Below, piece after piece: positions 5,189 through 28,223 of a stretch of DNA of 28,223 bases. The stretch's first letter is position 1, and every line of letters begins with the position of its first letter. The DNA lies in IMG/VR virus record IMGVR_UViG_3300031774_000108, positions 1-28,223 of that record; one strand, given 5' to 3'. Below the pieces are notes generated by a model. It worked only from the letters and a program-made list of their open reading frames with translations, was not told the origin of the DNA and made no database searches. Position numbers and translations under genes: made by a program. This stretch comes from a virus.

Positions 5189-5210
5189 TATTTGTACAAT
5201 TTACAGAGCT

Positions 5211-7724: not shown

Positions 7725-7739
7725 ATAGTTATCCCTCTA

Positions 7740-7747
7740 TATAAATA
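7740..7747 (-). promoter_or_regulatory. putative phage late promoter, TATTTATA box
   Basis: The minus strand reads ATATTTATATAGAG at 7748-7735, ending 15 bases before the ATG at 7724. The box begins about 7 bases after the T-tract of the terminator that closes the preceding unit, exactly where a new promoter is expected. An AGAGGG run then lies about 8 bases before the ATG and can serve as ribosome binding site. The same core occurs at five other operon heads in the window. Confidence 0.6.
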
Positions 7748-7753
7748 TGTAGA

Positions 7754-7781
7754 AATAAAAAACCCCACTCGTGGTGGGGTT
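7754..7781 (-). terminator. intrinsic terminator closing the tail operon
   Basis: An 8-bp perfect stem (AACCCCAC at 7761-7768 paired with GTGGGGTT at 7774-7781) with a 5-base loop is followed on the minus strand by a T-rich tract (TTTTTTATTT). It begins 20 bases after the stop of the 397-aa structural gene. GC-rich pairing in an AT-rich genome makes this a confident rho-independent terminator. Confidence 0.9.
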
Positions 7782-7801
7782 AGTAGTTTGAGAAGTTACT
7801 T

Positions 7802-8995
7802 TTAGAAATCAAGTTTTACTTTGATTAGAACTTCTTTGTCGAATGATTTAGCAATCGGCTTTGATGTTTTTGCAATTGCAAGTAATTCAGATGCATCGTT
7901 ATATAAACCTACTGAAGTAATAAATACTTTAGGGTCTTTCTTGAATGCCTCGTATTTAATTGAACTATCTGAACCACTTATGAATGTTGGGTTATTAGAG
8001 TAGTTAAACTCTCTGTTAGTTGCTCTTACGAAGTAATGTGAGGTAGAAACGTTTTCTGTTCTTCTTGCTTCGAAATCTCCTCCACTAACGATTGCGTTAT
8101 ATAATTGTCCATGATTTTCATATTCAGCATTTACTGCCAAGTTTGGTTCAACACCAATTGAAGCAGATACTGCAGTTGGGTTAAGAATAATTAACCCTTG
8201 GTCTGGATAAAATTTACCAAATCCTTGTCCATTTGAAGCAGTTGTAGAATGTACTGTTGCAGCTACATCAGTTCCTAAGTTAAGAGAACCACTTACTACA
8301 TCAAATACTCTACCGGCTTTTCCAACTTTATCCGAAAATTTCTTTCCACTATTATCTATAAGTGTTGTAACGAATGGTGCATGTGAACCACTAAGTTTCA
8401 ATGACCAGTTACCAGCATCCATAGATTCTTTATATCTTGCTCTTGCAACATTGATTACATAGATATCTGGAATATCTACTGAATCTGTACCATCAGAACC
8501 TAATACTGTAAATAAAGTATCTGTTTGGTCAAGTAGTACACTTCTATATTGGTTGTAAGTAGCTTTTGAAGGAAAGGTTGCGTCATCACTATTGGCCAAG
8601 GAAATAGAACCACTACCACTAACGTGTCCATATGCTACAGCAAACTGATTAGATGAAGTGGCAGCTGAATTATATACGTTGTAGTAATAATCACCACTTG
8701 CAGCAGTTGTTTGATTAGATGCAGTAAAGAAAGATGTTAACGAACCAGTATCGCCAGTCCAAAGACCAGTTGTTACTACTTCTATCTTACCCGATACTGT
8801 ATCGAACTCTCCAAATTTCTTGAAGATACCATTGTTGATGTTCCCACCTGCGGTTGAGATTTTATCACCACCTTGTAGGTATTGATTTAAAATGTTAACT
8901 AACTGTTCAGATGCAACTGCACCACCAGTCTGATTCAAATAATTTTGAATTGCTGATGTTAGATTTCTTCCGTCTTGTCCTGTTACTGTGGCCAT
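7802..8995 (-). CDS. virion structural protein of marine T4-like phage type (397 aa)
   Basis: This 397-residue protein has alternating beta strands with many Gly, Ser and Thr. Recognisable segments are TGLWTGDTGSLTSFF near residue 76, VAYGHVSGSGS near 119, ATYNQYRSVLL near 145, ARARYKESMDAGNW near 184, KFYPDQGLIILNP near 260 and SNNPTFISGS near 336. This pattern matches my recollection of a virion structural family in marine T4-like phages. It ends in the TSVGLYNDASELLAIAK module shared with the 385-aa protein. It is the last gene before the terminator and is preceded by AAAAGGAAAAAT as ribosome binding site. The likely role is a repeated tail or baseplate-periphery component; the exact location is not known. 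Confidence 0.75.
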   Translation of the reverse strand: MATVTGQDGRNLTSAIQNYLNQTGGAVASEQLVNILNQYLQGGDKISTAGGNINNGIFKKFGEFDTVSGKIEVVTTGLWTGDTGSLTSFFTASNQTTAASGDYYYNVYNSAATSSNQFAVAYGHVSGSGSISLANSDDATFPSKATYNQYRSVLLDQTDTLFTVLGSDGTDSVDIPDIYVINVARARYKESMDAGNWSLKLSGSHAPFVTTLIDNSGKKFSDKVGKAGRVFDVVSGSLNLGTDVAATVHSTTASNGQGFGKFYPDQGLIILNPTAVSASIGVEPNLAVNAEYENHGQLYNAIVSGGDFEARRTENVSTSHYFVRATNREFNYSNNPTFISGSDSSIKYEAFKKDPKVFITSVGLYNDASELLAIAKTSKPIAKSFDKEVLIKVKLDF

Positions 8996-9012
8996 ATCTT
9001 ATATTTTTCCTT

Positions 9013-9636
9013 TTATGCTACATATTTTACTGTGACTGGTATTGTTTGTGACCCTCCGGTCTCATTACCATAAACAGTAATAGTAGTTTGAATAGTTGAT
9101 GTTAAATTAGGGTTTGGTATAAACTTAAATACTCTACCCGTAACTACGGCTGCTGTTGTTGTTACTTCATCTCCTAAGAAGATTGGTGAAGTTCCAGCAG
9201 AAGTTGTTGTACCACTTCCGATAATACTTCCAGCTTCTTTGTTTGCCAATACAACAGTATAACCTGCAGTTGTGTTACCACTTGGTGAAGTAGTTGGTGT
9301 TAATGCAACTTCTCCCTCATCTTGACTAACAGAAATGTTAGGTACACCAAAAGAAACTTTTGGAATACGAGTTGTATTCTTTGGTAGTGTTACCAATTTA
9401 TATCTCATTACTTGAGTTTCATCTGGTGAAGCTTCAAGTACTGGTATTGCTTTAATTGCTGAATCATAAAACGCTGAGCCTTTTGGATGAGCTGGTTCGT
9501 ATAAACCATAATCAATCTCGTCATCGGCCAACGCAAATTGTGTAATGTTCAATCCTTGTCCGGCAGCTAATTTCTCTCTACCTTTCTTTGTTAGGATTGC
9601 ATCTACTGTTATCGAAGTATTGTCTAAGTAAGCCAT
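9013..9636 (-). CDS. virion structural protein with Ig-like C-terminus (207 aa)
   Basis: The N-terminal 90 residues contain SITVDAILTKKGREKLAAG (8-26), then ITQFALADDEIDYGLYEP (31-48), HPKGSAFYDSAI, and MRYKLVTLP near 77-85. I recall this block from a conserved structural family of marine phages, where it also begins Met-Ala-Tyr-Leu-Asp. Residues 95-207 are Thr/Gly/Val-rich strands resembling one or two Ig-like folds, often surface-displayed in phages. Start context: an ATATTTATA box lies 28 bases upstream, and AAAAGGAAAAA, almost identical to the next gene's site, supports ATG 9636. It probably sits on the tail or baseplate next to the 2160-aa protein. Confidence 0.75.
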   Translation of the reverse strand: MAYLDNTSITVDAILTKKGREKLAAGQGLNITQFALADDEIDYGLYEPAHPKGSAFYDSAIKAIPVLEASPDETQVMRYKLVTLPKNTTRIPKVSFGVPNISVSQDEGEVALTPTTSPSGNTTAGYTVVLANKEAGSIIGSGTTTSAGTSPIFLGDEVTTTAAVVTGRVFKFIPNPNLTSTIQTTITVYGNETGGSQTIPVTVKYVA

Positions 9637-9664
9637 AGTTTGTTTTTCCTTTTACCTTTCAGTA

Positions 9665-9672
9665 TATAAATA
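9665..9672 (-). promoter_or_regulatory. putative phage late promoter, TATTTATA box
   Basis: The minus strand reads ATATTTATATACTGAAAGG between the giant gene's upstream-facing neighbours, 28 bases before ATG 9636. It shares the full 11-base ATATTTATATA with four other sites. It would let the three small structural genes be expressed independently of the long upstream tail transcript. Confidence 0.6.
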
Positions 9673-9694
9673 TAACATTTTTTAATTTTAAATA

Positions 9695-16177
<6,483 letters not shown>

Positions 16178-16189
16178 CCTTACTTCCTA

Positions 16190-16546
16190 CTAATATGTAC
16201 CCCATCTGTTACTACTTCCTCTTGCAGAACCTGGTAGTTTAAGACCTGTGCCTGTATATCCTATATCACCAAGTACATTGTTAAATCCTAAATCAATAGG
16301 CCCGAAATCGAAATCAAAATCGAAATTAAAATCCAAATCACCTAAGTCAAATGGTTTTATTACGATATCATCAAAATCAATTGGACCTAAATCAATTGGG
16401 TCAGGTGGAGTATCATCTATTCTAATATCATCTAGTTGTGGTGTAAGTGTTTGTTTAACCACGATAGATTTGGTATCCCCCTCTTGATTCGTAAATGTTA
16501 TCTTTACTCTTCTAAAATTTTTTATTATGTTAGTTGGTGCAATCAT
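16190..16546 (-). CDS. small baseplate-region protein with half BACON-like strand pair and Asp-Phe repeat (118 aa)
   Basis: I do not recognise this 118-residue protein as a whole. Residues 11-32 (FRRVKITFTNQEGDTKSIVV) look like the last two strands of a BACON-type sandwich, ending in the usual Lys-Gln. Residues 38-90 are acidic and repetitive, with four PIDLG/FDLG-type units and an Asn-Phe-Asp-Phe-Asp-Phe-Asp-Phe run. The end is Gly/Ser-rich. The start codon lies 6 bases after an ATATTTATA box and an in-frame TAA lies two codons upstream, so no longer start exists. It sits between the 452-aa protein and the giant, 12 bases before the latter, so it is probably a small tail component or linker. 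Confidence 0.65.
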   Translation of the reverse strand: MIAPTNIIKNFRRVKITFTNQEGDTKSIVVKQTLTPQLDDIRIDDTPPDPIDLGPIDFDDIVIKPFDLGDLDFNFDFDFDFGPIDLGFNNVLGDIGYTGTGLKLPGSARGSSNRWGTY

Positions 16547-16552
16547 CTCTTA

Positions 16553-16560
16553 TATAAATA
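16553..16560 (-). promoter_or_regulatory. putative phage late promoter, TATTTATA box, nearly touching the start codon
   Basis: The minus strand reads ATATTTATATAAGAG immediately followed by the ATG at 16546. Only 6 bases separate the box from the start codon. If the box works at the usual -10 distance, transcription would begin at or next to the ATG and give a leaderless message. The box lies wholly in the 19-base gap after the 452-aa gene. Confidence 0.5.
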
Positions 16561-16565
16561 TCTCA

Positions 16566-17924
16566 CTACCTTAATTGTTCGAACTGTTTTGGTAATCTAA
16601 ATCTTTCTTCTTCAGGTAAAGGTCTACTTCCGCCTCCTCCTCCTCCACCTCGTGGTGGTGGTGGTGGTGGCCCATCATCTATTCTAGGTGAAGGTTGTCC
16701 ATTAAACTTTATTGGGAATAATGTACTACCAGCTGGTAAACTTGTTACTAGTGATTTAGCCCAAGCACTACCATAATATCCACCTTCATCTAATAGGTCT
16801 ATTCTTATTGTAACTGGTGATGTTGATTCAACATTAAATTGTTTCCGTCCTCCTTCAATACCAACAGTCATTTGTACAGGTGTCACCTTTAAACTAGATG
16901 GTGCATCTACAATCTCATCCTCTTCCTCTTCAGTTTCTTCTTCTGTATAATCATCAACTGTATTATCTTCTTCAGTAACTACTGGTTCATATGTGGTGTC
17001 ATTTGTAAGTTCTGTTATAAATTCTCTTACATCAACCGATGGGTCAAACGCTGTAGTTACAAAGTTATCATCTTGTACATTTCTCTTAGGTAATAACATA
17101 TCAACAATATCACAAGTTATTCTTAGGATATTTTTTAAGATATCATTAATATCTAAAAACACATCATCAACTTGGTCTGCAGGAAGTGGTTTCCCATAAT
17201 TTATTGATTTTGGATTGTAATCTTTACCATCCACATAATACCTTACTGCCTCTCTAACCTTTAGAGTTACATTTTGTATAAGTTGTTCAAAGTTTTGTAC
17301 ATTAAATTCTTTTTTTATTTGGTCTACATATGCTCTACCAAATCTACTTATCATTTTTTCAATTACATCATTGAACTTTATACTATCTAAAAATTCATCT
17401 ATATAATAAACTACATCATCTCTAAATGTTTTACCTGATGTAAATCCATCATATCTTTTAAATAAATCCTCATCAACTGTACCATCTGGATTTGTAACTG
17501 GTACTAATCTAACCTCAGTTCGTGATGGTGCAATTTCATGGATATATAGTTTTTCAGTATTATATCTACCTACTCTATTATTTAGTAATTGAAATTGTGT
17601 TTTAAATAATCCTTGATTATATCCAGCTTCTCTAATTAATTTTTCTACATCTACAAAATATTCTACGATATCATCACCTGAATCTTTTACTAGAAAGTAT
17701 TCAGTTATGTTTAATTGATTCAAAGATATATGACGTGTTAATTCACCACTATCTCCTTGTGGTAATTGGTTATCAGATGCATCATAAAGTGTAAACTCTA
17801 AAAAATCTTCTTTACCAGAGCCAAACCTAGAAAGCTTCTTACCTCTTTCGATAATAGCTCTATCTTTATCTAACACTCTAAACGCCGTGCGTTTATCTAT
17901 ATTTTTAAAATCTTCTACTGCCAT
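16566..17924 (-). CDS. baseplate/tail structural protein with acidic and Pro/Gly-rich C-terminus (452 aa)
   Basis: Residues 1-145 form a domain with YFVDVEKLIREAGYNQGLFK at 89-108 and IHEIAPSRTEVRLVP at 128-142. I recall the [IV]SPSRTE[IV]R pattern from large structural proteins of marine phages. Residues 150-285 are mostly helical. Residues 317-340 are strongly acidic, with about fifteen Glu/Asp. Residues 344-415 resemble the first half of a BACON-type sandwich (KVTPVQMTV, then GGRKQFNVES) but stop before the last strands. Pro6-Arg-Gly7 at 419-432 and a charged tail end it. It is 2 bases downstream of the coiled-coil gene. A structural role in the baseplate or short fibres is inferred from neighbours and composition. 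Confidence 0.7.
   Translation of the reverse strand: MAVEDFKNIDKRTAFRVLDKDRAIIERGKKLSRFGSGKEDFLEFTLYDASDNQLPQGDSGELTRHISLNQLNITEYFLVKDSGDDIVEYFVDVEKLIREAGYNQGLFKTQFQLLNNRVGRYNTEKLYIHEIAPSRTEVRLVPVTNPDGTVDEDLFKRYDGFTSGKTFRDDVVYYIDEFLDSIKFNDVIEKMISRFGRAYVDQIKKEFNVQNFEQLIQNVTLKVREAVRYYVDGKDYNPKSINYGKPLPADQVDDVFLDINDILKNILRITCDIVDMLLPKRNVQDDNFVTTAFDPSVDVREFITELTNDTTYEPVVTEEDNTVDDYTEEETEEEEDEIVDAPSSLKVTPVQMTVGIEGGRKQFNVESTSPVTIRIDLLDEGGYYGSAWAKSLVTSLPAGSTLFPIKFNGQPSPRIDDGPPPPPPRGGGGGGGSRPLPEEERFRLPKQFEQLR
16629..16670 (-). repeat. Pro6-Arg-Gly7 low-complexity tract
   Basis: This encodes six prolines, an arginine and seven glycines (residues 419-432 of the 452-aa protein). On the plus strand it appears as a run of CCT/CCG followed by GGT. 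It is the second proline-rich tract within 800 bases and lies in the C-terminal tail after an incomplete beta-sandwich. Confidence 0.9.
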
Positions 17925-17926
17925 TA

Positions 17927-19072
17927 TTAATTACCTGTTGCTGATACATCAACTCCCTCTTCTACTGTATGTACTCTTGGACCTGGATTATCTTGTGCAT
18001 AAGCCTTAACCTTGTAATCTCTTGAGTATGAGTAGAATAATTCTAATGAATCACCCTTGTTATTTGTAAACGTTATATCTAAAGTTGGGTATCTTCTCCA
18101 ACCAGTTGTATTATCTTCTTTCCATCCACCAGGTCTTTTAAATCCACAATTGATTGATGTGGCACCAGGTGTTGCTGTTTTTCCTAAATCTTCATTGTAC
18201 CCAATACCCGCAGGGATTGAGAATGAACTCGGTAAAGATATTGTACCAGGTTGTCCGCTATGTCCTTGTGGGTGTACTTTACTTACACTAACTGTCATTG
18301 GTTGTTCAGTAAAGTTATAGAATACCAACTCTCCACCATTAACCTTTTTATAGTTACCATAATCCCAATTGATAAACAATCCACCTTTTTGAGGATTTGT
18401 AATATTCAGTGCAGGAATCTTATATGCAAAATTATTTTTTTCTTGTTGTAGTGATGAGTTCAAGTAGTTAGTTTCTATCTCAGCTTCTATTTGAGCTTGT
18501 TGTGCCTCAATCGCTAATAGAGATGCTTCTAATCGAGCTCGTAGTGCTTCAAATCTTGCTTCAAGTGATACTCTTTCAACTGCCTCTTGAGTTGAACGTT
18601 CAATTGCTTTTTGAAGTTCTAATACAGTTTCTCTAAATTGGTCTGATAATGCGATATATAAGTTTTCTAGTTCTGCCAATGCTGTTTCTGCAGCAATTCT
18701 TTGTTCTAATTGTGTATCTCTATCTGCAGTCATTGCTATTAACTGAGAAGTTAAATCTTGAACGTTTGTTTCTAGTTCTGTAATTCTTGCATTTGCAGTT
18801 GCTAAATCTGCAACTACTTCATCATATACTGATTTTAGAACAACTGCCGGTAAATCTTTTCTATTTCTTACAAGTTCATCAACACCAATATCAATTGCTT
18901 TTTCAATCTCTTCTGGTATATACTTGGGTACTTCGAGAAAGGCAACAGATTCTCCATCCTTCTTATTTGCTGCAAGATGGATTTGTCTAGTATTCTCTTC
19001 GTAATACTTGACAGTTTCCGAACTATTCTTTTCGATTAATTCTTGTGCTCTTTCTTTATCTCCTAATGCCAT
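17927..19072 (-). CDS. coiled-coil tail/fibre protein with C-terminal beta domain (381 aa)
   Basis: Residues 1-80 are a small mixed domain. Residues about 84-212 are a long heptad-patterned coiled coil rich in Ala, Glu, Leu and Gln, with no prolines, long enough for a rod of roughly 18-20 nm if continuous. Residues 213-381 are beta-rich, with Gly/Trp/Tyr-containing strands and a TLDITFTNNKGDSLELFYSY segment that resembles the closing strands of the 118-aa protein. The layout (head, stalk, beta tip) is that of a trimeric tail fibre or baseplate strut. The start codon shares one base with the stop of the DNRLRE-like gene (TAATG). I cannot name a family. Confidence 0.7.
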   Translation of the reverse strand: MALGDKERAQELIEKNSSETVKYYEENTRQIHLAANKKDGESVAFLEVPKYIPEEIEKAIDIGVDELVRNRKDLPAVVLKSVYDEVVADLATANARITELETNVQDLTSQLIAMTADRDTQLEQRIAAETALAELENLYIALSDQFRETVLELQKAIERSTQEAVERVSLEARFEALRARLEASLLAIEAQQAQIEAEIETNYLNSSLQQEKNNFAYKIPALNITNPQKGGLFINWDYGNYKKVNGGELVFYNFTEQPMTVSVSKVHPQGHSGQPGTISLPSSFSIPAGIGYNEDLGKTATPGATSINCGFKRPGGWKEDNTTGWRRYPTLDITFTNNKGDSLELFYSYSRDYKVKAYAQDNPGPRVHTVEEGVDVSATGN

Positions 19073-20130
19073 TATTTAACCACTTCAAATGTTATATCAT
19101 CATCAAAATATTCAACAGTATCACTTCTTTCAACTTTAAATTCAACTTTATATTCTCTGTTAATTTCAAAGTTTGTAAGATTTACTTTAAAATAATTACC
19201 ATTTGCATCACATGATAGTTTTGAATAATCACCAAATGGAATTATAATATCGTTACTGTTTAAATCAGATATTTGATAATATGATGAAGTTGGTAAATAA
19301 TTTACATCGTTGTATGCAAAAGTATTTGAGAAAGTTCTAGCAGGATATAATTCCCTACCATGAACTTCAATTTTTGGAGTTGTACCTACTTTGTATGATT
19401 TTTTTAATCGTTTTGTATTTAACTTAATATCTTCTGTAAGAGTTAATGCTGATAATGAACCTGTTTCGAATACTGAATCATCCCAACCTATTTTTATTTT
19501 TGGTTGATGAATCGTATGAGTTTCTTTACTAAAGAACTTAAGTTGGCCATAATCATTATTATCATTCTCAAATGCACTTGTATGTTTAAGAATAAACCCT
19601 TCGTTTGTTAGAGAACCACTAATCCATGAATCTACTGCAGAAAGAACATCCATATTAATATCACTAGATTCATATGCAAAAGATTGAGTTGCAGCAGAAC
19701 CAGTAAACCAAGTACCTCCCTTACCATTGTAAGAACCACTTGATTCTGGACTCATATCACCTACTAACCAATCACTACCATCTGTTCTCTGATTCCATGT
19801 TACACCATCAGTTGTAATATCATCAAACCTAGTACCTATACCCATTTCCCAAGATTGTGAAACTGGATATGCCTCAATTGTATATTCAAGAGGAATCTCG
19901 GTTGATTCACATTCTCTAAGAATAAGTTCTGCAGAACTCATTGTTACTGCACCACTTGCAAGTGATGATGATAATCCATTAATATCAAATTTAATCAATG
20001 AACGTGCTGTATCTTTTAAAGAACCATAATATACTTTGGACACTTCAAGTACTTCATCCAAACCTGTATTTTGAGTTGGTTGTTGTAAATATAAACTCGC
20101 GTCCTTCGATGATGTAACGAAATAATACAT
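19072..20130 (-). CDS. DNRLRE-domain-like baseplate/tail protein (352 aa)
   Basis: The first 200 residues fit the DNRLRE pattern: SSKDASLYLQQ near 7-17, Asn-Thr-Gly then Leu-Glu-Val-Ser near 21-32, RSLIKFDI near 43-50, SSAELILRECES near 64-76, and further on TWNQRTDGSDW and VLSAVDSWISGSLTNEGFIL. DNRLRE modules are beta-sandwich carbohydrate-binding-like domains often found on secreted bacterial proteins. Residues 225-352 are a second beta-rich part ending in a GNYFKVNLTNF strand and an acidic tail. It sits directly after gp6, sharing one base at each gene junction, so it is probably a baseplate-attached receptor-binding or wedge accessory protein rather than a free enzyme; no catalytic motif was seen. 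Confidence 0.65.
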   Translation of the reverse strand: MYYFVTSSKDASLYLQQPTQNTGLDEVLEVSKVYYGSLKDTARSLIKFDINGLSSSLASGAVTMSSAELILRECESTEIPLEYTIEAYPVSQSWEMGIGTRFDDITTDGVTWNQRTDGSDWLVGDMSPESSGSYNGKGGTWFTGSAATQSFAYESSDINMDVLSAVDSWISGSLTNEGFILKHTSAFENDNNDYGQLKFFSKETHTIHQPKIKIGWDDSVFETGSLSALTLTEDIKLNTKRLKKSYKVGTTPKIEVHGRELYPARTFSNTFAYNDVNYLPTSSYYQISDLNSNDIIIPFGDYSKLSCDANGNYFKVNLTNFEINREYKVEFKVERSDTVEYFDDDITFEVVK

Positions 20131-22157
20131 TATATGATTCTCCCTTTTATATCTTGGTTTGGATACTTCAGTTCAAATACTGATGGGTCTAACGAAGGAT
20201 ATATGATGTTGCTCCTTGTTGCCTCTTCAAAGTTATATGAACGTGCAGAATAGTTTCCTCCACATTTATTTTTAAATTCTAATTTTGAAACAGAAACAAC
20301 TCCTTCTATGTTTGCAAGAATTAATTCTACTTCATTTATGTTGATTGTATCGTTGAATGTCCAATTATCAATATTAAAGTAATCTTGTAATGCAAGGTTA
20401 CAATTAGTAAGAACTTCTCTTCTGTTGTACCCCGTCAGAGCAGTTACATCGAACTCTATCGCAAAATTGATAACATACCCATCAATGATATTAATACCAT
20501 CTGTAATCATCTTATAATTGTTTAGATATCTTTTTAAGTTCTCTTTAACTGCAGAGTTTAGGATTGTTAAGTTTTTACTTGAGTTATATCCAAGAGTATA
20601 GATGTTAATACTAAATGGATTTGATTTATCATTTGCTCTGTTCTTCTTACCTGCTAAGAATAAATCAACATTTCTTTTTATCTCACTTCGTTGTAAGGTT
20701 CTGTTTTTATCAACCAAATCTACAAATTCTTTTTGTGATTCTGGTGCTGCAATAACTGAAGCTGGTGAGTTGGCATCTAATTTGTTATCTTGTATAACAA
20801 ACGCCTTTGCAACAGAACCAAACTTTGCCGGCATTGCCAAACATCTAACTACATAATCTTGAGCAGTTACGGCTCTGTTCTGAGCTCCAAAGTAAGCCAA
20901 TGCGTTTTCTTTTATTTCTTTTATAGTTTCTGCACCTCTACCTCCTGTTGCTGGAATTTCGTTTTCACAAGCAACTGAGTTAATTACAGTACTATATAAT
21001 TGTTTTTCTGCATCGGTGAATGATGCGATATCAGTATCATACTGAATATCTGTTATTTGTTTTACATCACCTTTCTTAACATTTGATTGAATTCCACCAC
21101 CTACAAAGTACTTAACTGTAACTGTTGTGTTGGTTGGTGATTGTCCATATGATTTTGTTTTTAAGAAGTTTGCAGGGTCATAGTATTCAGATAATCTATT
21201 ATTTGAATTAGTTAACCCTAATCCTATATTATCAAAGTTTGGTACTATCAACTCATCACTAACGTTAGAATCACCAGAACCAAATTGAATTGTAGTTGTA
21301 AAATCTTCATTAACTACTGTTGTAAATCTTCTTGGTGTTCTTAATGTTTTTAATATTGATGGTACATCTTCTCTAAACTGAAATAAATCAGGTTCGTTTG
21401 CTGCTGTATTTGGATAATCTATATAAACAAGTTCTTGTCCAAGATAAGGTACTTCATAATATTTGTTTGCGTTTGCATCTCTAACATCATATATTGATAT
21501 TACATTTGTATCTTTTAAATCTATTTTGGCAAAATCTGCACGAGGGCCGAAGTCAATATCAATTTCTTTTAGAGTTGCAGACATTGCTTTTACTTTTTTC
21601 TTAACCAAATAGAACTCTGGGTCATTAGTACTAGTATTTCTTGAATATACTGTAATTTCTCTATTAGCAGATTCGTTGAAATCTAATAACTCTTGAGTTA
21701 CAAATTGTATTCCATCTACCGATGTTGCAACCATACCTTGTTGAACTCTAAGATAAAATTTTGTATCTGGTTCATAATCATTTGCAGAACCAGCTTTATA
21801 TTTTGATGGTACAAGTTGATATATAGTTAATTCGGTAACCGCTGGGGAAGTTACTTTTGTTTTATATCCTAAGTACTTGGCAAGTGATAAAACGTTTCTC
21901 TTATCCTCTGCATACGGCATTAAGGATTCTTTTAAGGTATCATCAATATAGTATCCTAAAACATCTCCAATATACGATGCCATTTCAATGAACATCATAC
22001 CTGGTGATGATTCATTAAAATCTGCATGAGTTTTTGGAAAATAAGTTTTAGCAAATTCTATAAGATTTTGTCTAAAAGACCCAAAGTCCTTGTTAAGGTA
22101 TTTTAATGATTTACCTTTATCCTTAAAGTTCGAATTTACATTATTATTTATTGCCAT
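20130..22157 (-). CDS. 6: baseplate wedge protein gp6-like (baseplate J family)
   Basis: At 675 residues it is close to T4 gp6 (660). The N-terminus (LKYLNKDFGSFRQNLIEFAK at 18-37, then YFPKTHADFNESSPGMMFIE) is the hallmark of phage gp6/baseplate-J proteins, followed by SYIGDVLGYYIDDTLKES. The middle has a Gly-Arg-Gly-Ala-Glu-Thr segment and AYFGAQNRAVTAQDYVVR near 414-431, a conserved landmark of the family. The C-terminal third (INEVELILANIEGVVSV near 620) dimerises wedges in T4. gp6 links the six wedges into the baseplate ring and transmits the switch that triggers sheath contraction. It starts 1 base after the gp25 stop and is followed by the DNRLRE-like gene, so a single translated string of baseplate genes is clear. 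Confidence 0.92.
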   Translation of the reverse strand: MAINNNVNSNFKDKGKSLKYLNKDFGSFRQNLIEFAKTYFPKTHADFNESSPGMMFIEMASYIGDVLGYYIDDTLKESLMPYAEDKRNVLSLAKYLGYKTKVTSPAVTELTIYQLVPSKYKAGSANDYEPDTKFYLRVQQGMVATSVDGIQFVTQELLDFNESANREITVYSRNTSTNDPEFYLVKKKVKAMSATLKEIDIDFGPRADFAKIDLKDTNVISIYDVRDANANKYYEVPYLGQELVYIDYPNTAANEPDLFQFREDVPSILKTLRTPRRFTTVVNEDFTTTIQFGSGDSNVSDELIVPNFDNIGLGLTNSNNRLSEYYDPANFLKTKSYGQSPTNTTVTVKYFVGGGIQSNVKKGDVKQITDIQYDTDIASFTDAEKQLYSTVINSVACENEIPATGGRGAETIKEIKENALAYFGAQNRAVTAQDYVVRCLAMPAKFGSVAKAFVIQDNKLDANSPASVIAAPESQKEFVDLVDKNRTLQRSEIKRNVDLFLAGKKNRANDKSNPFSINIYTLGYNSSKNLTILNSAVKENLKRYLNNYKMITDGINIIDGYVINFAIEFDVTALTGYNRREVLTNCNLALQDYFNIDNWTFNDTININEVELILANIEGVVSVSKLEFKNKCGGNYSARSYNFEEATRSNIIYPSLDPSVFELKYPNQDIKGRII

Positions 22158-22158
22158 T

Positions 22159-22590
22159 TTATGTACCCAACGTAAATGTTACTGTTTGTAAATCTAAAGT
22201 TTCCCCTACTTTAAATTTAATTTCAACACCTACTTTATTTCTGTCTTTATTACTATCAGATATATCTATAAATATATCGTCAATTGTTATATATGGTAAC
22301 CATTGAGAAACTGATTCAGTAATTGTATCAGAAACTCGTGTTTCAAATGTTTCATCTATTGGTTCAAATAAAAGAGTTTGTAATCCACTACCAAACTCTG
22401 GTTGTAAAAATCTTTCTCCCTTTTTAGTTAACAATAGATTTCTTAAATTACTTTTTGCTTGGTCAAATGTATTGAAATTTTGTTCAAAGAAACCACCATT
22501 ACCATTTTTAATTGGCAAAGATAATCCTACTGCATAATCGTTAAATTCTTCAGTATCAATTACTACTTTCTTTGAAATCTCGTAAGCCAT
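22159..22590 (-). CDS. 25: baseplate wedge protein gp25-like
   Basis: At 143 residues it is close to T4 gp25 (132). Family features are a Gly-Gly-Phe-Phe near 32-35, the KSNLRNLLLTKKGERFLQPEFG region (47-68), GLQTLLFEP at 70-78, and ITIDDIFID near 100-108. gp25 sits at the inner rim of the baseplate, initiates sheath assembly by handshake with the first sheath ring, and has homologues in P2 (gpW) and type VI secretion (TssE). Its gene lies between the 175-aa gene (3-base gap) and gp6 (1-base gap). The usual neighbourhood and length leave little doubt. Confidence 0.95.
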   Translation of the reverse strand: MAYEISKKVVIDTEEFNDYAVGLSLPIKNGNGGFFEQNFNTFDQAKSNLRNLLLTKKGERFLQPEFGSGLQTLLFEPIDETFETRVSDTITESVSQWLPYITIDDIFIDISDSNKDRNKVGVEIKFKVGETLDLQTVTFTLGT

Positions 22591-22593
22591 TTA

Positions 22594-23121
22594 TTATTCC
22601 TGACCAGGTCTCCAATTTTTCTTTTTATCAAATGCTTTTACCAAAGAACTATTATCTCTGTTTAAAACTCTATCCAATCCAGCCAATCCTGTCTGAACTC
22701 CTAAACCTGTTGATTTAGATGCACCACCCATATTCATATTACCATACCCCATTTGTGCTGCCATTGAATGTTGCAGGTTCGGTGGTACACCTCCTCCCAT
22801 CGCAACGTTATGTCCTCCGAATCCTACTGTTTTATCCATTTGTTCAAATGGTTTAGTATTTTGTAACGCCTCATTTAACGCTGGATTGTTGGAATACGTT
22901 TTAGTATTTGTTTGTTGTCTATCATCTTCCAATACAGCTGTTGCAAGGGAGAATGGGTCAACATCTTGTTGATTTGTTATTGGTTGTTTTGATTCTTGAA
23001 TTCTTTTTATTTCTTCTTTAAGAATCTTGGGAAAGGTTTTACTCAAAAACTTTTCTTGTTGTTTTGCAACCTCTGCCTCTACCAATACCTTCACCAATTT
23101 AGCTAATTTTTTCGCTTCCAT
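22594..23121 (-). CDS. unknown tail-module protein, helical N-terminus (175 aa)
   Basis: I do not recognise this protein. Residues 1-45 are an amphipathic, Lys/Glu-rich helix (AKLVKVLVEAEVAKQQEKF) with coiled-coil potential. Residues 48-110 are Gln/Asn-rich and probably disordered. Residues 115-150 are rich in Gly, Met and Asn (including MGYGNMNMGG). The C-terminus, LDRVLNRDNSSLVKAFDKKK, looks like a short helical docking segment. Lying between gp5-like spike genes and gp25 and behind its own promoter-like box, it may be an assembly chaperone, tail-length or baseplate-hub accessory protein. That is inference from position only. Confidence 0.6.
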   Translation of the reverse strand: MEAKKLAKLVKVLVEAEVAKQQEKFLSKTFPKILKEEIKRIQESKQPITNQQDVDPFSLATAVLEDDRQQTNTKTYSNNPALNEALQNTKPFEQMDKTVGFGGHNVAMGGGVPPNLQHSMAAQMGYGNMNMGGASKSTGLGVQTGLAGLDRVLNRDNSSLVKAFDKKKNWRPGQE

Positions 23122-23158
23122 AATTAATTAAGTTTGTTTAAACTAAGTTTTCTCTTTA

Positions 23159-23166
23159 TATAAATA
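23159..23166 (-). promoter_or_regulatory. putative phage late promoter, TATTTATA box
   Basis: The minus strand reads ATATTTATATAAAGAGA in the 67-base gap, 37 bases before ATG 23121. It would drive the 175-aa gene, gp25, gp6 and the following genes. The gap also holds AT-rich sequence with TTAATTAATT just before the start and no clear Shine-Dalgarno. Confidence 0.6.
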
Positions 23167-23188
23167 TTGATTCTTTATTTTTTGGATA

Positions 23189-23746
23189 TTATCCAGGAAT
23201 TTGGTATCCTTTCCAAGTTCTAACACCTGGCCCTGGCAAAGGAGTAGGTGCTGTTGGATACAATGATGTTGTTATAATAATTCCCTCTACTGTCATTAAG
23301 TGTGCAACTATTGCCAAAGCTAATACATCTACGAATGATTTTACTGAGTTAGTTGGTGGTGTTGGAATATTTGTTGACCATTGACCTGGATTTATAATTA
23401 AGTGAACTTGTGATGATATATTTTGTATTGTTCCATCTGCAGGAATAGCAGGTGGTGGAAATAATCCTCCTTGTGCACCTAACCAATATGCCTTAAACGC
23501 AGGGCCCCAATCTTGAATGTTTAATGTACCACTCTGTTTAAAGTTATTCATTCTAAAGAAACCTTTTAATATTAATTCCATTGTTGCAGTATTTCCCGTC
23601 TGAAGTGGTACTGCATTTAAAAGGTCAGTTCCTCGTTTTACTGCTCCATCATATTGTGATGTTAAGTATTCAGCAAAATCATCACTTGAGTCTGGTTCAG
23701 TACTCATGTATCTTATTAAATTACTTTTAAATAGATTTAGTGACAT
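23189..23746 (-). CDS. unknown tail/baseplate-region protein (185 aa)
   Basis: I do not recognise this protein. Residues 1-60 are mixed helical (SLNLFKSNLIRYM at the start). The middle contains NIQDWGPAFKAYWLGAQGG near 76-94. A hydrophobic helix-like segment spans about 134-156 (VDVLALAIVAHLMTVEGIII), and the C-terminus is Pro/Gly-rich (APTPLPGPG). The hydrophobic segment has no flanking charge pattern typical of a membrane span and may be buried in a fold. The start codon shares one base with the spike gene's stop, so it is translated with the gp5-like protein; a spike-associated tip, hub or chaperone role is possible but unproven. Confidence 0.6.
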   Translation of the reverse strand: MSLNLFKSNLIRYMSTEPDSSDDFAEYLTSQYDGAVKRGTDLLNAVPLQTGNTATMELILKGFFRMNNFKQSGTLNIQDWGPAFKAYWLGAQGGLFPPPAIPADGTIQNISSQVHLIINPGQWSTNIPTPPTNSVKSFVDVLALAIVAHLMTVEGIIITTSLYPTAPTPLPGPGVRTWKGYQIPG

Positions 23747-25029
23747 TAGTTTGTGAAATTAGCAGGTGATAATATATTTTTTAATTTACTTTTTATAGAA
23801 TTATATTTTGGTGCATTTACAGGTGGACCAGATGGGCCTGCAGGAGTTGGATGTGTTTCAGATGCTAATTCTGTAAGTAATTCATCTAATAACTTTACCA
23901 ATTCATTTCCTCTTACAAGTTGTTCATTAGAATCATCTCCAATGTGTATTTCACCTGAACCTGCGAATAAATTAAAATCATTATCGGTGGTTACTATGTT
24001 TATATTATCACCAGTTGTAATATCAATTCCAAGTGCATTATCAATTGACATTCCTTTATCTGATATAAATCCATAGTTACCTTTAGAATAAAAAATCATT
24101 TCAGCATTTTTTGATGAAAAGATTAATCTTCCACTACTAATTAAAATTTGGTCACCTGTTAAATCATCTGCAGAAGGATAATCTTTAAATGTATCAGGTG
24201 TTGTTTCAAAATCAGAAGTACCTTTATCATCAACAGTACCTGGTATGAAGGGTAGTTGATAATCTCGTGAACCCATTACTATTGTAGAACCATCTCTATT
24301 GACATCTTCTAGTGTTGTTCCACCGATTTTTTGTGATGAAAACTCTCCTTGAGATTCTCTTGATGGGTCTGATTCTCTGTTTCGTATAATAGTTGTTGGT
24401 GAGAATTTATTATCATCGTTGTTGTATCCACTAAATCTTAGTGATTGACCAAAACGAGATTCTATTATAGTATCACCTTCAAATAATTTTAATCTATGTA
24501 TCTTGGCATCTGCCTCAAAATAATCACCATAATCTCCTTGATTACTAGTACTACCTCCTTGTGGTTGTGATACACCAGTAGATGAATTATCACCATAACC
24601 ACCTCCACCACCACTTTTATCTGAACTACCAAATGTTTCTCTATAAAGAACTAAACCTTCGTTTGATACGTTTGGTGTACCTGCAATATTAAATTGACGA
24701 TAAAACTTTTTACCTGCCATTCTAATTATCTGAACTTCTTCTCCCAAGACTGGAAGAGTTCTAATTGTTGCGTCAAGTGGATATACTATTGGAAGGTCTT
24801 CGTCTTGAACTTCTGAATTAGATAATGTTCTTACTCTAACCCCACCTATCTTACCAGTATGTATATCTGATGCGTCAATGCCATCTACCTGTCCTACTTC
24901 TTTGAACTTAGGTAATGATTTATTAGTTTCATCTAAAATTACATCTATTACAATACCAGTATCACTTCTACTTTTGGATTGTGTTCTTTGTTTAGATGTT
25001 TGTACGTTGTTGTCACTAAATTTAAACAT
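23746..25029 (-). CDS. 5: baseplate central spike protein, gp5/VgrG-like, without lysozyme domain
   Basis: This 427-residue protein has an N-terminal OB-fold-like part (about 24-125, with IVIDVILDETN and VLGEEVQIIRM), as in gp5/VgrG/gpV spikes. A Gly/Ser-rich linker is at about 136-170. Then comes KLFEGDTIIESRFGQSLRFSG (about 180-200), a motif that recurs in spike proteins, and an Ile-Ile-Arg-Asn. Residues 300-365 carry repeated short strands (ISSGRLIFSSKNAEMIFYSK, then ITTGDNINIVTTDNDFNLFA), typical of the triple-stranded beta-helix needle. The end, HPTPAGPSGPPVNAP, matches spike C-termini I recall. T4 gp5 also has a lysozyme domain between OB and needle; here only a glycine-rich linker occupies that slot. 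It should form the trimeric hub needle that punctures the outer membrane. It overlaps the preceding gene by 8 bases. Confidence 0.8.
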   Translation of the reverse strand: MFKFSDNNVQTSKQRTQSKSRSDTGIVIDVILDETNKSLPKFKEVGQVDGIDASDIHTGKIGGVRVRTLSNSEVQDEDLPIVYPLDATIRTLPVLGEEVQIIRMAGKKFYRQFNIAGTPNVSNEGLVLYRETFGSSDKSGGGGGYGDNSSTGVSQPQGGSTSNQGDYGDYFEADAKIHRLKLFEGDTIIESRFGQSLRFSGYNNDDNKFSPTTIIRNRESDPSRESQGEFSSQKIGGTTLEDVNRDGSTIVMGSRDYQLPFIPGTVDDKGTSDFETTPDTFKDYPSADDLTGDQILISSGRLIFSSKNAEMIFYSKGNYGFISDKGMSIDNALGIDITTGDNINIVTTDNDFNLFAGSGEIHIGDDSNEQLVRGNELVKLLDELLTELASETHPTPAGPSGPPVNAPKYNSIKSKLKNILSPANFTN

Positions 25030-25438
25030 TTTTATTTACCTTCTGTTTTAATTCTTCAACTTCGTTTGTTAGTTCATCAACCTTTGTATCGTGTTCATCG
25101 GAAACTTCTGCAATGGTATCTTCTAGTTGTGATAGTAATTGTTCTTTTTCTTTATCTGTTAAGAATCCGCTATCTCCTTCTGCTTTGTTTTGAGCTCCAA
25201 TCATTCTTTGTGCAATTGCTGCCATTTTGATTAATGATTCATCATTTCGAACTGAAGTATCAACTAAATCTTTTATGATTGGTCCAATTACTGCCATATC
25301 ACCAGAATGTCTAATTACCTTCTTCATTTCGGCAATCAATTCTGATATTCTTGATTTTTTATTTTGCTGGTTATCGTAGATGTCTTTAAACAATCCACTT
25401 AAATCTTTACCAGGAAATAATTCAAAGTTTGTACTCAT
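25022..25438 (-). CDS. unknown helical protein preceding the spike gene (138 aa)
   Basis: I do not recognise this protein. It is almost entirely helical. Residues 15-60 include SRISELIAEMKKVIRHSGDM, residues 60-85 include IKMAAIAQRMIGAQNK, and residues 93-136 are a strong Glu/Lys/Leu coiled coil (LLSQLEDTIAEVSDEHDTK onward). It has no membrane span. It begins the tail transcript behind an ATATTTATA box 22 bases upstream and overlaps the spike gene by 8 bases. Coupling to the spike suggests a chaperone, hub or tape-measure-associated factor, an inference from position. Confidence 0.65.
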   Translation of the reverse strand: MSTNFELFPGKDLSGLFKDIYDNQQNKKSRISELIAEMKKVIRHSGDMAVIGPIIKDLVDTSVRNDESLIKMAAIAQRMIGAQNKAEGDSGFLTDKEKEQLLSQLEDTIAEVSDEHDTKVDELTNEVEELKQKVNKNV

Positions 25439-25460
25439 AATTTTTATACATTATCTCATA

Positions 25461-25468
25461 TATAAATA
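25461..25468 (-). promoter_or_regulatory. putative phage late promoter heading the tail module, TATTTATA box
   Basis: The minus strand reads ATATTTATATATGAGA 22 bases before ATG 25438. It begins about 10 bases after the T-tract of the terminator for the 76-aa gene, so the 138-aa gene and the spike cannot easily be served by read-through alone. This is the cleanest terminator-to-promoter junction in the window together with that at 7.75 kb. Confidence 0.65.
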
Positions 25469-25477
25469 TCATAAACG

Positions 25478-25505
25478 AAAAAACCTCACTTTTTCAAGTG
25501 AGGTT
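25478..25505 (-). terminator. intrinsic terminator after the membrane-protein gene
   Basis: A perfect 10-bp stem (AACCTCACTT at 25482-25491 with AAGTGAGGTT at 25496-25505) and a 4-base loop are followed on the minus strand by six T residues. It lies 33 bases downstream of the stop of the 76-aa gene. Confidence 0.92.
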
Positions 25506-25538
25506 AGTTCTTAAACGCGTTATGTTAATCAATAGTTA

Positions 25539-25769
25539 TTACTTTTTGATTATGTGGTAAAGTACGAAAGCACCAACAAGTCCTAATAGACCTTCAGCAC
25601 TCAAACCTCCTAAAATGCCCATGATGTTATCAACTACTGATACCTCTGGCCAGAATGGGATGTCTGCACCTTTGAAGAGTACTTCAAGTACAACTCCTAA
25701 GGCTATGATACTAATACCAATTTTTGTAAGTTCTTCAGCCCAAGAGCCGATTTTTTTCAAAAATTCCAT
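25539..25769 (-). CDS. small two-helix membrane protein, holin-like candidate (76 aa)
   Basis: The product has two hydrophobic spans, about residues 17-33 (IGISIIALGVVLEVLF) and 54-73 (GLSAEGLLGLVGAFVLYHI), with a 20-residue loop containing two prolines and Trp40, and a double-lysine end. The N-terminus is short and amphipathic. Size and layout fit a class II holin, and I recall similar small membrane proteins near tail genes of marine phages, but no lysis partner (endolysin, spanin) is seen here, so the role is open. An AAAGGAGA ribosome binding site is 7 bases before the ATG. The gene is monocistronic: a terminator upstream at 25.93 kb, one downstream at 25.49 kb, and a roughly 150-base leader of its own. 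Confidence 0.75.
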   Translation of the reverse strand: MEFLKKIGSWAEELTKIGISIIALGVVLEVLFKGADIPFWPEVSVVDNIMGILGGLSAEGLLGLVGAFVLYHIIKK

Positions 25770-25877
25770 ATGCTTCTCCTTTGTTTTAATTAGAAAAATA
25801 ACTTTCTCATATTACAAAACGTCGGACATGTCAGTAATAACTATGGTATATATGAAGTAAAAAGTATGTTTTAGAAT

Positions 25878-25896
25878 TTCACACCGATTGTGTGAA
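25878..25896 (-). repeat. inverted repeat in the leader of the membrane-protein gene
   Basis: Perfect 7-bp arms TTCACAC and GTGTGAA flank a 5-base centre. It lies 108 bases before ATG 25769, between the upstream terminator and the gene. No T-tract follows on the minus strand, so it is not an intrinsic terminator. It could be an operator or an RNA hairpin. A TTGACA (25912-25907) precedes it, but I find no convincing -10 at 16-18 bases, so I do not call a promoter. Confidence 0.6.
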
Positions 25897-25916
25897 CTAT
25901 ATCAGGTGTCAATAAG

Positions 25917-25943
25917 AAAACCCAACCTTACGGGGTTGGGTTT
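25917..25943 (-). terminator. intrinsic terminator after the secreted-protein gene
   Basis: A perfect 10-bp stem (AAACCCAACC at 25918-25927 with GGTTGGGTTT at 25934-25943) with a 6-base loop ends on the minus strand in TTTTCTT. It starts 24 bases after the stop of the 123-aa gene and separates it from the membrane-protein leader. Confidence 0.88.
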
Positions 25944-25967
25944 CTATCTAATCACTTTGAATTACGA

Positions 25968-26339
25968 TTAGTCATTTAGAGCCACAATCGCCTTCAATCT
26001 TTTGATTTCAGCCTTCATTTGTTCGTACTCTATCTGTTCATAAGTATAACGAGGTTGTCCTTTTGGTTTAATCCAAACCAACTTTCCTCTCTTATACAAC
26101 GCCTTTGTACCTACATCATCACTCCAATAAGAGTGGACTAATAGTTTGCCATCTTCTGTTCCGATGTATGTTCCCTTTTGATGTATAGAACCATCTTCGT
26201 TGTAAGCTCTATACTCGTAAAGATTGTTGTCTATCTGTGTAATAACTTTGGTTTGACCAAAGAGGGATAGTGAACACAGAGATAATACTAGGATTGCTAT
26301 TATTTGAACAATCTTTACTTTTGGTAATTGTTCTTTCAT
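25968..26339 (-). CDS. secreted/periplasmic protein with MORN/YwqK-like repeat (123 aa)
   Basis: Residues 1-29 look like a signal peptide: Lys-rich start, hydrophobic IIAILVLSLCSLSLF core, then Gly-Gln, a cleavage pattern common in Bacteroidetes exported proteins. The mature part has NLYEYRAYNEDGSIHQKGTY then a Trp-Ser-Asp-Asp strand and a LYKRGKLVWIKPKG strand, which resembles MORN-2/YwqK-type beta repeats. The C-terminus (EYEQMKAEIKRLKAIVAL) is a short coiled coil. Export to the periplasm or outer surface of the host is inferred. It could be a superinfection-exclusion or lysis-related factor, or cargo captured from a host. A textbook AAAGGAGG lies 6 bases before the ATG, with an ATATTTATA box 14 bases upstream. 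It ends at its own terminator. Confidence 0.75.
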   Translation of the reverse strand: MKEQLPKVKIVQIIAILVLSLCSLSLFGQTKVITQIDNNLYEYRAYNEDGSIHQKGTYIGTEDGKLLVHSYWSDDVGTKALYKRGKLVWIKPKGQPRYTYEQIEYEQMKAEIKRLKAIVALND

Positions 26340-26353
26340 AATTCCTCCTTTAG

Positions 26354-26361
26354 TATAAATA
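26354..26361 (-). promoter_or_regulatory. putative phage late promoter, TATTTATA box, variant flank
   Basis: The minus strand reads TATATTTATACT, then AAAGGAGG and the ATG at 26339, with 14 bases between box and start. The 9-base core ATATTTATA is intact, but the flanking TA of the other five sites is CT here. It lies in the 57-base gap after the carbamoyltransferase. Confidence 0.5.
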
Positions 26362-26396
26362 TACCAATGTTAAGAAATTGTTATGTAAATGTAAAA

Positions 26397-28115: not shown

Positions 28116-28223
28116 CTCTACTATCGGTTGTAAATTCTCCTACTTCTAGGTATTCATTTAAAATCTTTCTCTGATGTTGTTTCATTACGTTAACTACTTT
28201 TGTTATGTAATGTGTTTTAACAT
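28093..28223 (-). CDS. 3' end of an unknown gene, cut by window edge
   Basis: An open frame enters from the window edge and ends at TAA 28093-28095, covering the last 42 residues or, if the ATG near 28185 is used, a 30-residue peptide (MKQHQRKILNEYLEVGEF...). It is hydrophilic, with a final Ser-Trp-Glu-Gly. The overlap with the carbamoyltransferase start (23 bases) fits the translational coupling seen elsewhere here. I cannot assign it and cannot exclude that it is only a chance frame. Confidence 0.4.
   Translation of the reverse strand, partial: VKTHYITKVVNVMKQHQRKILNEYLEVGEFTTDSRDEFSWEG

What the first reader, a model, noticed from the sequence alone, without database searches (positions are those of the whole stretch)
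7735..26361. Six operon-head copies of ATATTTATA: a late promoter that is the reverse complement of the T4 late box
Reading the minus strand, ATATTTATA occurs just upstream of six starts (boxes at 7740, 9665, 16553, 23159, 25461 and 26354), extended to ATATTTATATA in five, at 6-37 bases from the ATG. Two follow directly behind strong terminators, so they are placed where promoters must be. T4 late promoters read TATAAATA in the direction of transcription; here TATAAATA is found on the opposite strand and the sense strand reads TATTTATA. By eye I find one other copy of the box in the same orientation (6773-6780, inside the 385-aa gene) and none in the opposite orientation. This looks like a diverged late sigma (gp55-like) specificity.
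Basis: partly seen in the sequence, partly recalled or inferred. Interest (0 to 1): 0.75.

Follow-up and report, generated by a model that had tools for sequence, protein, structure and literature searches.

The report
Altered T4-type late promoter in phages
A group of T4-like phages, one of which was isolated on Flavobacterium, appears to switch on late genes with its own sigma factor and a TATTTATA start signal that differs from the classic T4 signal at its two central letters, so a well-studied phage control system seems to have changed its DNA preference across a lineage.

Summary
In the 128-kb contig containing the window it is 25 sense, 0 antisense, 18 of 25 within 60 nt of a start. Upstream of one orthologous tail-region gene ATATTTAT is in 62 of 74 distinct regions versus 10 of 1251 control segments; TATAAATA in 0 of 74. 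Distances to ATG match T4 late promoters. The boxes lack the TTG of a separate host-type promoter class in the same genomes. A gp55-like sigma gene runs off the window's right end (last 42 codons 28093-28221); homologues are in 16 of 16 large records. "Reverse complement of the T4 box" misleads: TATTTATA differs from TATAAATA only at two central positions. Best reading: a gp55-like, -10-only late promoter of shifted specificity; a new variant of a known kind. The sigma has an extra C-terminal helical domain. Weak points: no RNA 5' ends; sequence link to gp55 weak; the late timing rests on immuto and tail-region synteny, since none of 10 box-headed genes scanned elsewhere in the contig matched a virion family.

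The parts
26354..26362 (-). box ATATTTATA, 14 nt before the start of the 123-aa gene (26339)
25461..25469 (-). box ATATTTATA (ATATTTATATA 25459-25469), 22 nt before 25438, directly behind a terminator-like stem-loop
25482..25505 (-). terminator-like stem-loop before the box at 25461
23159..23167 (-). box (ATATTTATATA 23157-23167), 37 nt before the 175-aa gene (23121), followed by the gp25-like gene (22590-22159) and a baseplate-wedge-like gene (22157-20130)
16553..16561 (-). box (ATATTTATATA 16551-16561) only 6 nt before ATG 16546: predicted leaderless mRNA for the 118-aa gene, upstream of the 2160-aa gene
9665..9673 (-). box (ATATTTATATA 9663-9673), 28 nt before the 207-aa gene; ATATTTAT found before 62 of 74 distinct orthologous regions
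7740..7748 (-). box (ATATTTATATA 7738-7748), 15 nt before the 385-aa gene, directly behind a terminator-like stem-loop
7761..7781 (-). terminator-like stem-loop before the box at 7740
22267..22275 (-). copy of the 9-mer inside the gp25-like gene, 109 nt before the next start; not counted as a promoter
6773..6781 (-). copy of the 9-mer inside the 385-aa gene, 208 nt before the next start; not counted as a promoter
28093..28221 (-). last 42 codons and stop of the gp55-like sigma gene (243 aa in the 128-kb contig, bases 63724-64455)
5208..5216 (-). TATATTAGC, -7-like element of a host-type promoter before the DNA primase gene (ATG 5188)
5236..5238 (-). TTG (-33-like element) of that promoter, starting 22 nt before TATATTAGC

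Best explanation
The boxes are promoters of a T4-type late system. The phage makes a divergent gp55-like sigma (243 aa in the window's genome) that binds host RNA polymerase and reads a -10-like element, ATATTTAT followed by A or T, without a -35 element; transcription starts a few bases downstream and most ATGs follow 14-30 nt after the box. Other genes use a different, bipartite host-type promoter (TTG about 20 nt before TATATTTAG, TATATTAGC or TAnnTTTG, depending on the phage), and in the window's genome such a promoter lies about 0.9 kb before the sigma gene. Specificity has moved by the exchange of two adjacent central bases (AA to TT) against T4, not by inversion. Shown: the boxes, their strand bias, position and conservation, the second promoter class, the sigma homologue and its predicted region-2 fold. 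Inferred: that this sigma is what reads the box, that the genes are expressed late, and the position of the RNA start.
For: Window-containing contig: 25 sense, 0 antisense; a second contig 36:0; phage immuto 16:1. Within 60 nt of starts: 18 of 25, 25 of 36 and 10 of 17, against 7-8% of the coding strand. A count of all upstream words puts TATTTAT (7-mers) and ATATTTAT (8-mers) first in two of the three genomes. Before one orthologous gene: ATATTTAT in 62 of 74 distinct regions vs 10 of 1251 control segments; TATAAATA 0 of 74. ATG distances peak at 20-23 nt; T4 TATAAATA 13-34 nt. No TTG excess about 20 nt before the box. Two classes in immuto: TTG-N16-20-TATATTTAG 20 sites, 0 in virion-gene arcs; ATATTTATA 16 sense sites, 11 in those arcs, p = 7e-6; seven of the 16 lie before genes annotated terminase, tail sheath, tail tube, baseplate hub, tail spike or tail fibre. 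Sigma: immuto gp118 and a G008 protein match the gp55 family phrog_234 weakly (E 0.008 and 2.6e-5); T4 gp55 matches the new family's profile co-linearly over residues 13-159 (15.1 bits, E 6.5e-7 for a search of that one sequence); model vs T4 gp55 7d7c_F Z 10.1, rmsd 5.4 over 118 residues; sigma in 16 of 16 records. 21 of 79 distinct sigma loci have ATATTTAT within -20 to +90 nt of the sigma stop (about 2 expected from 0.023 per stretch).
Against: No RNA 5' ends. Outside the window, none of 10 box-headed genes of the 128-kb contig matched a virion family (three matched thymidylate kinase, DNA methyltransferase and cytidyltransferase families), and one of 8 genes behind the host-type promoters matched a tail family, so the late/early split is shown in immuto only. 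The immuto arcs were drawn by me from the annotation after I had seen the sites; five of 16 sites lie outside them. The window genes 207 aa, 385 aa and 175 aa behind boxes match no PHROG. The link to gp55 is weak: hhalign of 16 sequences against one T4 sequence gives probability 4.5, E 0.009; phrog_234 rings in 2 of 18 records at E<=1 and also in 7 of 14 control genomes; Foldseek 7d7c_F rank 42, E 1.2, probability 0.96; the aligner's note says Z under about 13 can be a common arrangement for helical proteins. Strand bias is weak in some relatives (9:6 in G006, 4:2 in G017). In T4 itself 6 of 13 ATATTTATA copies have an open ATG frame within 45 nt, at least one overlapping a TATAAATA.
Confidence: 0.82

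Rival explanations
1. The box is a variant of the host sigma-A -7 element (TAnnTTTG; compare TATATTTA), read by host sigma and not by a phage sigma.
For: TATATTTATA shares TATATTT with the Flavobacterium -7 box TAnnTTTG, which lies at -12 to -5 (passages of PMC9723704). None of 10 box-headed genes scanned outside the window in its contig matched a virion family.
Against: No TTG excess at the -33 spacing, whereas a separate class with TTG about 20 nt upstream exists in the same genomes: 20 of 21 TATATTTAG sites in immuto, the 13 TATATTAGC sites of the 128-kb contig (TTG seen by eye), and 49 TTG-N17-21-TAnnTTTG, 20 of them near starts, in G003. A gp55-like sigma accompanies the box.
Confidence: 0.1
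2. The boxes are ordinary T4-type TATAAATA late promoters on the opposite strand, firing antisense to the genes.
For: TATTTATA on one strand is TATAAATA on the other.
Against: In the three genomes examined nearly all genes that I called lie on one strand (154 of 163, 279 of 297, 213 of 225). The box keeps the T4 distance to the sense ATG, two window copies follow terminators that end sense transcripts, and the conserved A/T steps lie upstream in the sense direction.
Confidence: 0.03
3. The box is an A/U-rich translation or mRNA-stability element in the leader, not a promoter.
For: It lies close to start codons, and Flavobacteria lack Shine-Dalgarno sequences (start of the abstract of PMC6847099).
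Against: The distance to ATG is not fixed (3 to about 40 nt, two modes); two window copies follow a terminator with little room for another promoter between; A/T-rich steps recur upstream of the box.
Confidence: 0.04

Closest known systems
T4 late promoter TATAAATA with gp55, gp33 and gp45
   Same: One -10-like box, no -35 element, ATG about 13-34 nt downstream, a small phage sigma with a region-2 fold, bipartite host-type promoters beside it.
   Different: Two central bases AA to TT; the sigma is about 240 aa (T4 185) with an extra C-terminal helical domain; repeated A/T steps upstream of the box; no gp33 found by profile; a gp45 relative found in only some records.
Aeh1 late promoter CTAAATA with its diverged gp55 (PMC1524935, passages)
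   Same: Published in-silico precedent for a diverged late box in a T4-like phage together with a diverged gp55.
   Different: The change there is at -12 (C) and -13, the central AAA is kept; here, in the same register, -12 A is kept and the centre changes.
Caulobacter phage Cr30 gp55
   Same: Shares FSYFT in region 2 with the new sigma.
   Different: Its most enriched upstream word in the 49 kb examined is ATAAGTA (6 of 12 copies near starts); the central AA is kept.
Flavobacterium sigma-A promoter (TTG ... TAnnTTTG)
   Same: Resembles the second promoter class of these phages.
   Different: The ATATTTAT boxes have no -33 TTG.

Membership tests
T4-type late promoter | Single -10-like box, no conserved -35 | tested here: met
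   No TTG excess about 20 nt upstream; the box is the only stretch of high information
T4-type late promoter | Sequence TATAAATA | tested here: not met
   TATTTATA core; TATAAATA 0 of 74 before an orthologous gene
T4-type late promoter | Located at heads of late (virion) genes | tested here: inconclusive
   For: immuto 11 of 16 in virion arcs vs 0 of 20 of the other class, seven before annotated virion genes. Against: 0 of 10 box-headed genes of the window's contig outside the window match a virion family
T4-type late promoter | RNA starts about 6 nt after the box | not testable with these tools
   No RNA data; purine-rich at nt 4-5 after the box
gp55 late sigma | Sequence homology to gp55 | tested here: met
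   Family profile vs T4 gp55 15.1 bits, co-linear over residues 13-159. Weak elsewhere: phrog_234 2 of 18 records, 7 of 14 control genomes ring too; hhalign probability 4.5
gp55 late sigma | Sigma region-2 fold as in gp55 | tested here: met
   7d7c_F Z 10.1, rmsd 5.4, 118 aligned of 137, model 13-140; sigma-E region 2 (4lup) 2.4 A over 91. Other sigmas are close in Z, so this says sigma region 2, not gp55 alone
gp55 late sigma | Promoter-contact residues Y97 and T99 (PMC7892883 section 8) | tested here: met
   Aligned Y95 in 50 of 50; T97 in 44 of 50, S in 6
gp55 late sigma | Contacts to A(-9): N13 and H95 | tested here: not met
   H95 position F in 50 of 50, but F also in P-SSM2, S-RIM8, Cr30 and Moby gp55; N13 position T, K, L, E, S or M in 46 of 50 (the other four not printed), register set by eye
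T4 late activation | gp33 co-activator | tested here: inconclusive
   phrog_254 0 of 8 records (4 of 14 control genomes ring); a small divergent protein could be missed
T4 late activation | gp45 sliding clamp | tested here: inconclusive
   phrog_223 1 of 18; with that clamp as query 10 of 16 records, not G001, G005, G006, G025, G026 or immuto
Sigma region 4 | C-terminal domain folds as region 4 | tested here: inconclusive
   Four-helix, HTH-like domain; SigR region 4 (5fgm) Z 5.1, 3.2 A over 65, tied with unrelated proteins

The most novel reading that the evidence does not exclude
These phages carry a self-sufficient late sigma: a gp55-like region 2 that reads ATATTTAT, fused to a C-terminal HTH-like domain that takes the place of gp33 and/or region 4 and contacts the A/T steps at -5/-6, -13/-14 and -21 to -24 before the box (8-9 bp apart), so that late initiation need not depend on the replication clamp in members such as immuto.
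Probability: 0.22. Interest if true: 0.72.

Novelty: new variant of a known kind. Interest (0 to 1): 0.55.

Why it matters
T4 late transcription is the textbook case of a phage sigma coupled to DNA replication. Here a lineage seems to keep the logic but to have changed the DNA preference at two central bases and enlarged the sigma. That offers a natural pair for finding which residues set the specificity of a minimal sigma, gives operon annotation for many viral contigs (534 distinct copies of the box examined), and lets one ask whether late transcription can run without gp33 or the clamp.

Tried and rejected
'Reverse complement' as a mechanism: rejected, see the report. H95 to F as the specificity switch: rejected, because the gp55 of Cr30 and P-SSM2 also has F while the central AA is kept in Cr30's enriched word ATAAGTA and, on few copies, in P-SSM2 (ATAAATA 5 of 8 before an open ATG frame). 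A C-terminal aromatic (FW-type) tail of the sigma as a clamp-binding motif lost together with the clamp: not supported, since the sigmas of G021 and G022 (L278, L282) lack that tail while their records hold the clamp (the tail of L282 itself was not printed, that of its close relatives L278, L279, L272 was). Sigma-70-type promoter scan: uninformative, 99 found vs 99.3 in shuffles. PDB sequence search with the sigma profile: only a TrpR-like protein, E 0.56. Foldseek with the C-terminal domain alone: best E 2.0, no family. Host-type TTG-N16-22-TAnnTTTG in the window: three matches, all inside genes. TTG-N17-23-TATATTW within 2.5 kb upstream of the sigma: 44 of 61, no control made, so not used. 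P-SSM2 gave no enriched upstream words in my simple test.

Literature: nine searches on late promoters, gp55, TATTTATA, immuto and Flavobacterium or Bacteroidota phages; among the titles listed (12 of 127, 10 of 11, all in the others) I saw none on a late promoter of these phages; one search was for host promoters. Papers seen: PMC2988020, PMC9723704, PMC1524935 in passages; PMC7892883 in passages and section 8; PMC8776804 searched for four terms, none found; all others, PMC6847099 included, as listings with the start of the abstract. One search listed four papers that mention immuto; I opened none of them.

Full report
What was checked. The six boxes are present at the stated places and distances, all on the strand that carries the genes, and five are extended to ATATTTATATA. 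None lies on the other strand. The 8-mer count alone is not unusual (8 vs 6.1 in shuffles); the 9-mer count is (8 vs 2.4, 0 of 100 shuffles; 1.2 expected on the coding strand under a third-order model), and so is the position before starts (6 of 8 within 60 nt of 23 starts chosen by me that cover 4.9% of the window, p = 3.5e-7). Composition cannot explain the strand bias: the coding strand has more A than T (38.9% A, 29.3% T in the 128-kb contig), which would favour TATAAATA.

Whole genome. The window matches bases 64325-92547 of a 128,139-base IMG/VR contig, read in reverse, at 99.986% over its whole length. There ATATTTATA occurs 25 times in the gene direction and never in the other; 18 of 25 lie within 60 nt of a start, against 7.5% of that strand (starts from my own simple gene caller). 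A 237-kb relative gives 36:0 with 25 of 36 near starts, and Flavobacterium phage immuto 16:1 with 10 of 17. In 17 related contigs the two strands give 25:0, 37:4, 36:0, 7:1, 25:2, 9:6, 18:1, 12:0, 18:5, 4:0, 16:3, 15:0, 16:0, 9:1, 10:2, 14:0 and 4:2 (larger count first). A count of all upstream words puts TATTTAT (7-mers) and ATATTTAT (8-mers) first in two of three genomes; in immuto the word ATATTTAG of the other promoter class is first among 8-mers.

Conservation. The N-terminus of the orthologue of the 207-aa gene (start 9636) was found in 109 loci, which give 74 distinct upstream regions of 80 nt. In these ATATTTATA occurs in 39, ATATTTAT in 62, TATTTAT in 69 and TATAAATA in none; in 1251 control segments of the same loci the counts are 6, 10, 36 and 8. 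The conserved core is thus ATATTTAT, followed by A or T. Many of the 74 are close relatives.

Anatomy. Pooling the fetched relatives, 534 distinct contexts of the 9-mer were examined, of which 416 have an open ATG frame within 45 nt downstream and 118 do not. ATG distance peaks at 20-23 nt; a small second mode at 3-6 nt (36 of 416) would give leaderless mRNAs and includes the window box at 16553. Leaderless mRNAs make up 5.5% in F. psychrophilum (passage of PMC9723704). As a control, the same test on T4 finds 23 of 31 TATAAATA copies before an open ATG frame at 13-34 nt; for T4 ATATTTATA it is 6 of 13. The 416 sites show A/T-rich steps at -5/-6 (about 0.9), -13/-14 (0.92-0.95) and -21 to -24 (0.78-0.85) before the box, 8-9 bp apart, with troughs at -3, -18 and -29; the 118 others do not, a subset of 252 sites without a T-run upstream keeps the pattern, and in the 23 T4 sites the positions that match -13/-14 are 0.78 and 0.57.

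Two promoter classes. In immuto 20 of 21 TATATTTAG sites have a TTG 16-20 nt before them, and none of the 20 lies in the virion-gene arcs (48% of the genome) that I drew from the annotation after seeing the sites; ATATTTATA has 11 of 16 there (Fisher p = 7e-6). Seven of the 16 lie before genes annotated as terminase, tail sheath, tail tube, baseplate hub, tail spike or tail fibre. The 128-kb contig has 13 TATATTAGC sites, each with a TTG about 20 nt upstream by eye; one is in the window, before the DNA primase gene (5208-5238), and one lies before a short run of genes that ends in the sigma gene (62799; sigma 63724-64455). G003 has the plain host form TTG-N17-21-TAnnTTTG (49 copies, 20 near starts). 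The boxes show no TTG excess at that spacing. Against a clean split in the window's genome: of 10 box-headed genes outside the window none matches a virion family (thymidylate kinase, DNA methyltransferase and cytidyltransferase families are matched), and of 8 genes behind TATATTAGC sites one matches a tail family. 'Late' is therefore inferred from immuto and from the tail-region synteny of the window.

The sigma factor. A search for the gp55 family phrog_234 gave weak hits in 2 of 18 records, one being immuto gp118, annotated only as hypothetical; the same search at that threshold also rang in 7 of 14 control genomes. From gp118, phmmer found 23 stretches, immuto counted twice, and an iterated profile 104 stretches in the loci then held, some from the same contigs, including the window's genome, where the last 42 codons lie inside the window at 28093-28221. 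In 16 large records all 16 have it; nine of these were picked as sigma loci and immuto supplied the query, so the six picked by tail genes are the fair count (6 of 6). T4 gp55 matches the family profile co-linearly (15.1 bits), though hhalign with a small alignment is weak. The AlphaFold2 model (mean pLDDT 80.3, pTM 0.45) aligns with T4 gp55 in its promoter complex (7d7c_F) at Z 10.1, rmsd 5.4 over 118 residues, rank 2 of the list, and with sigma-E region 2 at 2.4 A over 91. Other sigma factors score close to it, so the structure says 'sigma region 2', and the sequence match and context say 'gp55-like'. The new protein is longer (about 240 vs 185 aa) and has a C-terminal four-helix, HTH-like domain (pLDDT 82.5); its best matches include SigR region 4 but are tied with unrelated proteins.

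How it most likely works. In T4, gp55 stacks A(-12) on Y97, holds A(-9) by N13 and H95, and A(-8) by T99 (PMC7892883 section 8); T4's box runs from -13 to -6 (PMC1524935, passage). If TATTTATA is laid on the same register, A(-12) and A(-8) are kept and only -10 and -9 change from A to T. The family keeps Y (50 of 50) and T or S (44 and 6 of 50) at the positions aligned with Y97 and T99, while the N13 position, N in 8 of the 9 gp55 proteins that I aligned, is T, K, L, E, S or M in 46 of 50. H95 is F throughout, but gp55 of Cr30 and P-SSM2 also has F, with the central AA kept, so H95 alone is not the switch. The N13 idea rests on an alignment set by eye. Precedent: phage Aeh1 has a changed late box together with a diverged gp55 (PMC1524935).

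Clamp and gp33. A relative of the gp45-type clamp of G002 is found in 10 of 16 records, mostly the longer ones; it was not found in the window's contig (which may be incomplete) or in the 160-kb immuto genome, which has family A DNA polymerase. gp33 was not found by profile in 8 records. Whether late transcription is coupled to replication here is open.

Novelty. A gp55-driven late promoter is known, and in-silico variants are known; this is a new variant, with a central AA to TT change, a larger sigma and repeated A/T steps upstream, spread over a group of phages with a cultured Flavobacterium relative. In the searches listed under Tried and rejected I saw no paper that describes it.

Noticed in passing
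window 5208-5238 (-): A host-type promoter (TTG starting 22 nt before TATATTAGC) before the DNA primase gene, the only TATATTAGC on the coding strand of the window.
   Followed up: yes
window 16551-16561 (-) and 36 of 416 boxes in relatives: Boxes only 3-6 nt before ATG, which predict leaderless mRNAs.
   Followed up: partly
window 9695-16177 (-): A 2160-aa ORF with a long proline run near its start; function not assigned.
   Followed up: no
window 26397-28115 and 5639-6202 (-): Carbamoyltransferase and sulfotransferase genes in a phage tail-gene region (Pfam matches).
   Followed up: no
immuto (NC_055915.1) 22092-76214: Most of the 16 TATATTTAGGTA promoters share a conserved stretch after it (TCAATAATTAAAA in ten or so), possibly a common leader.
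   Followed up: no
G002, G003, G004 and immuto: Phages with the same sigma differ in polymerase: family B in three of 8 records (G002, G003, G004), family A above cut-off in immuto and G004.
   Followed up: partly
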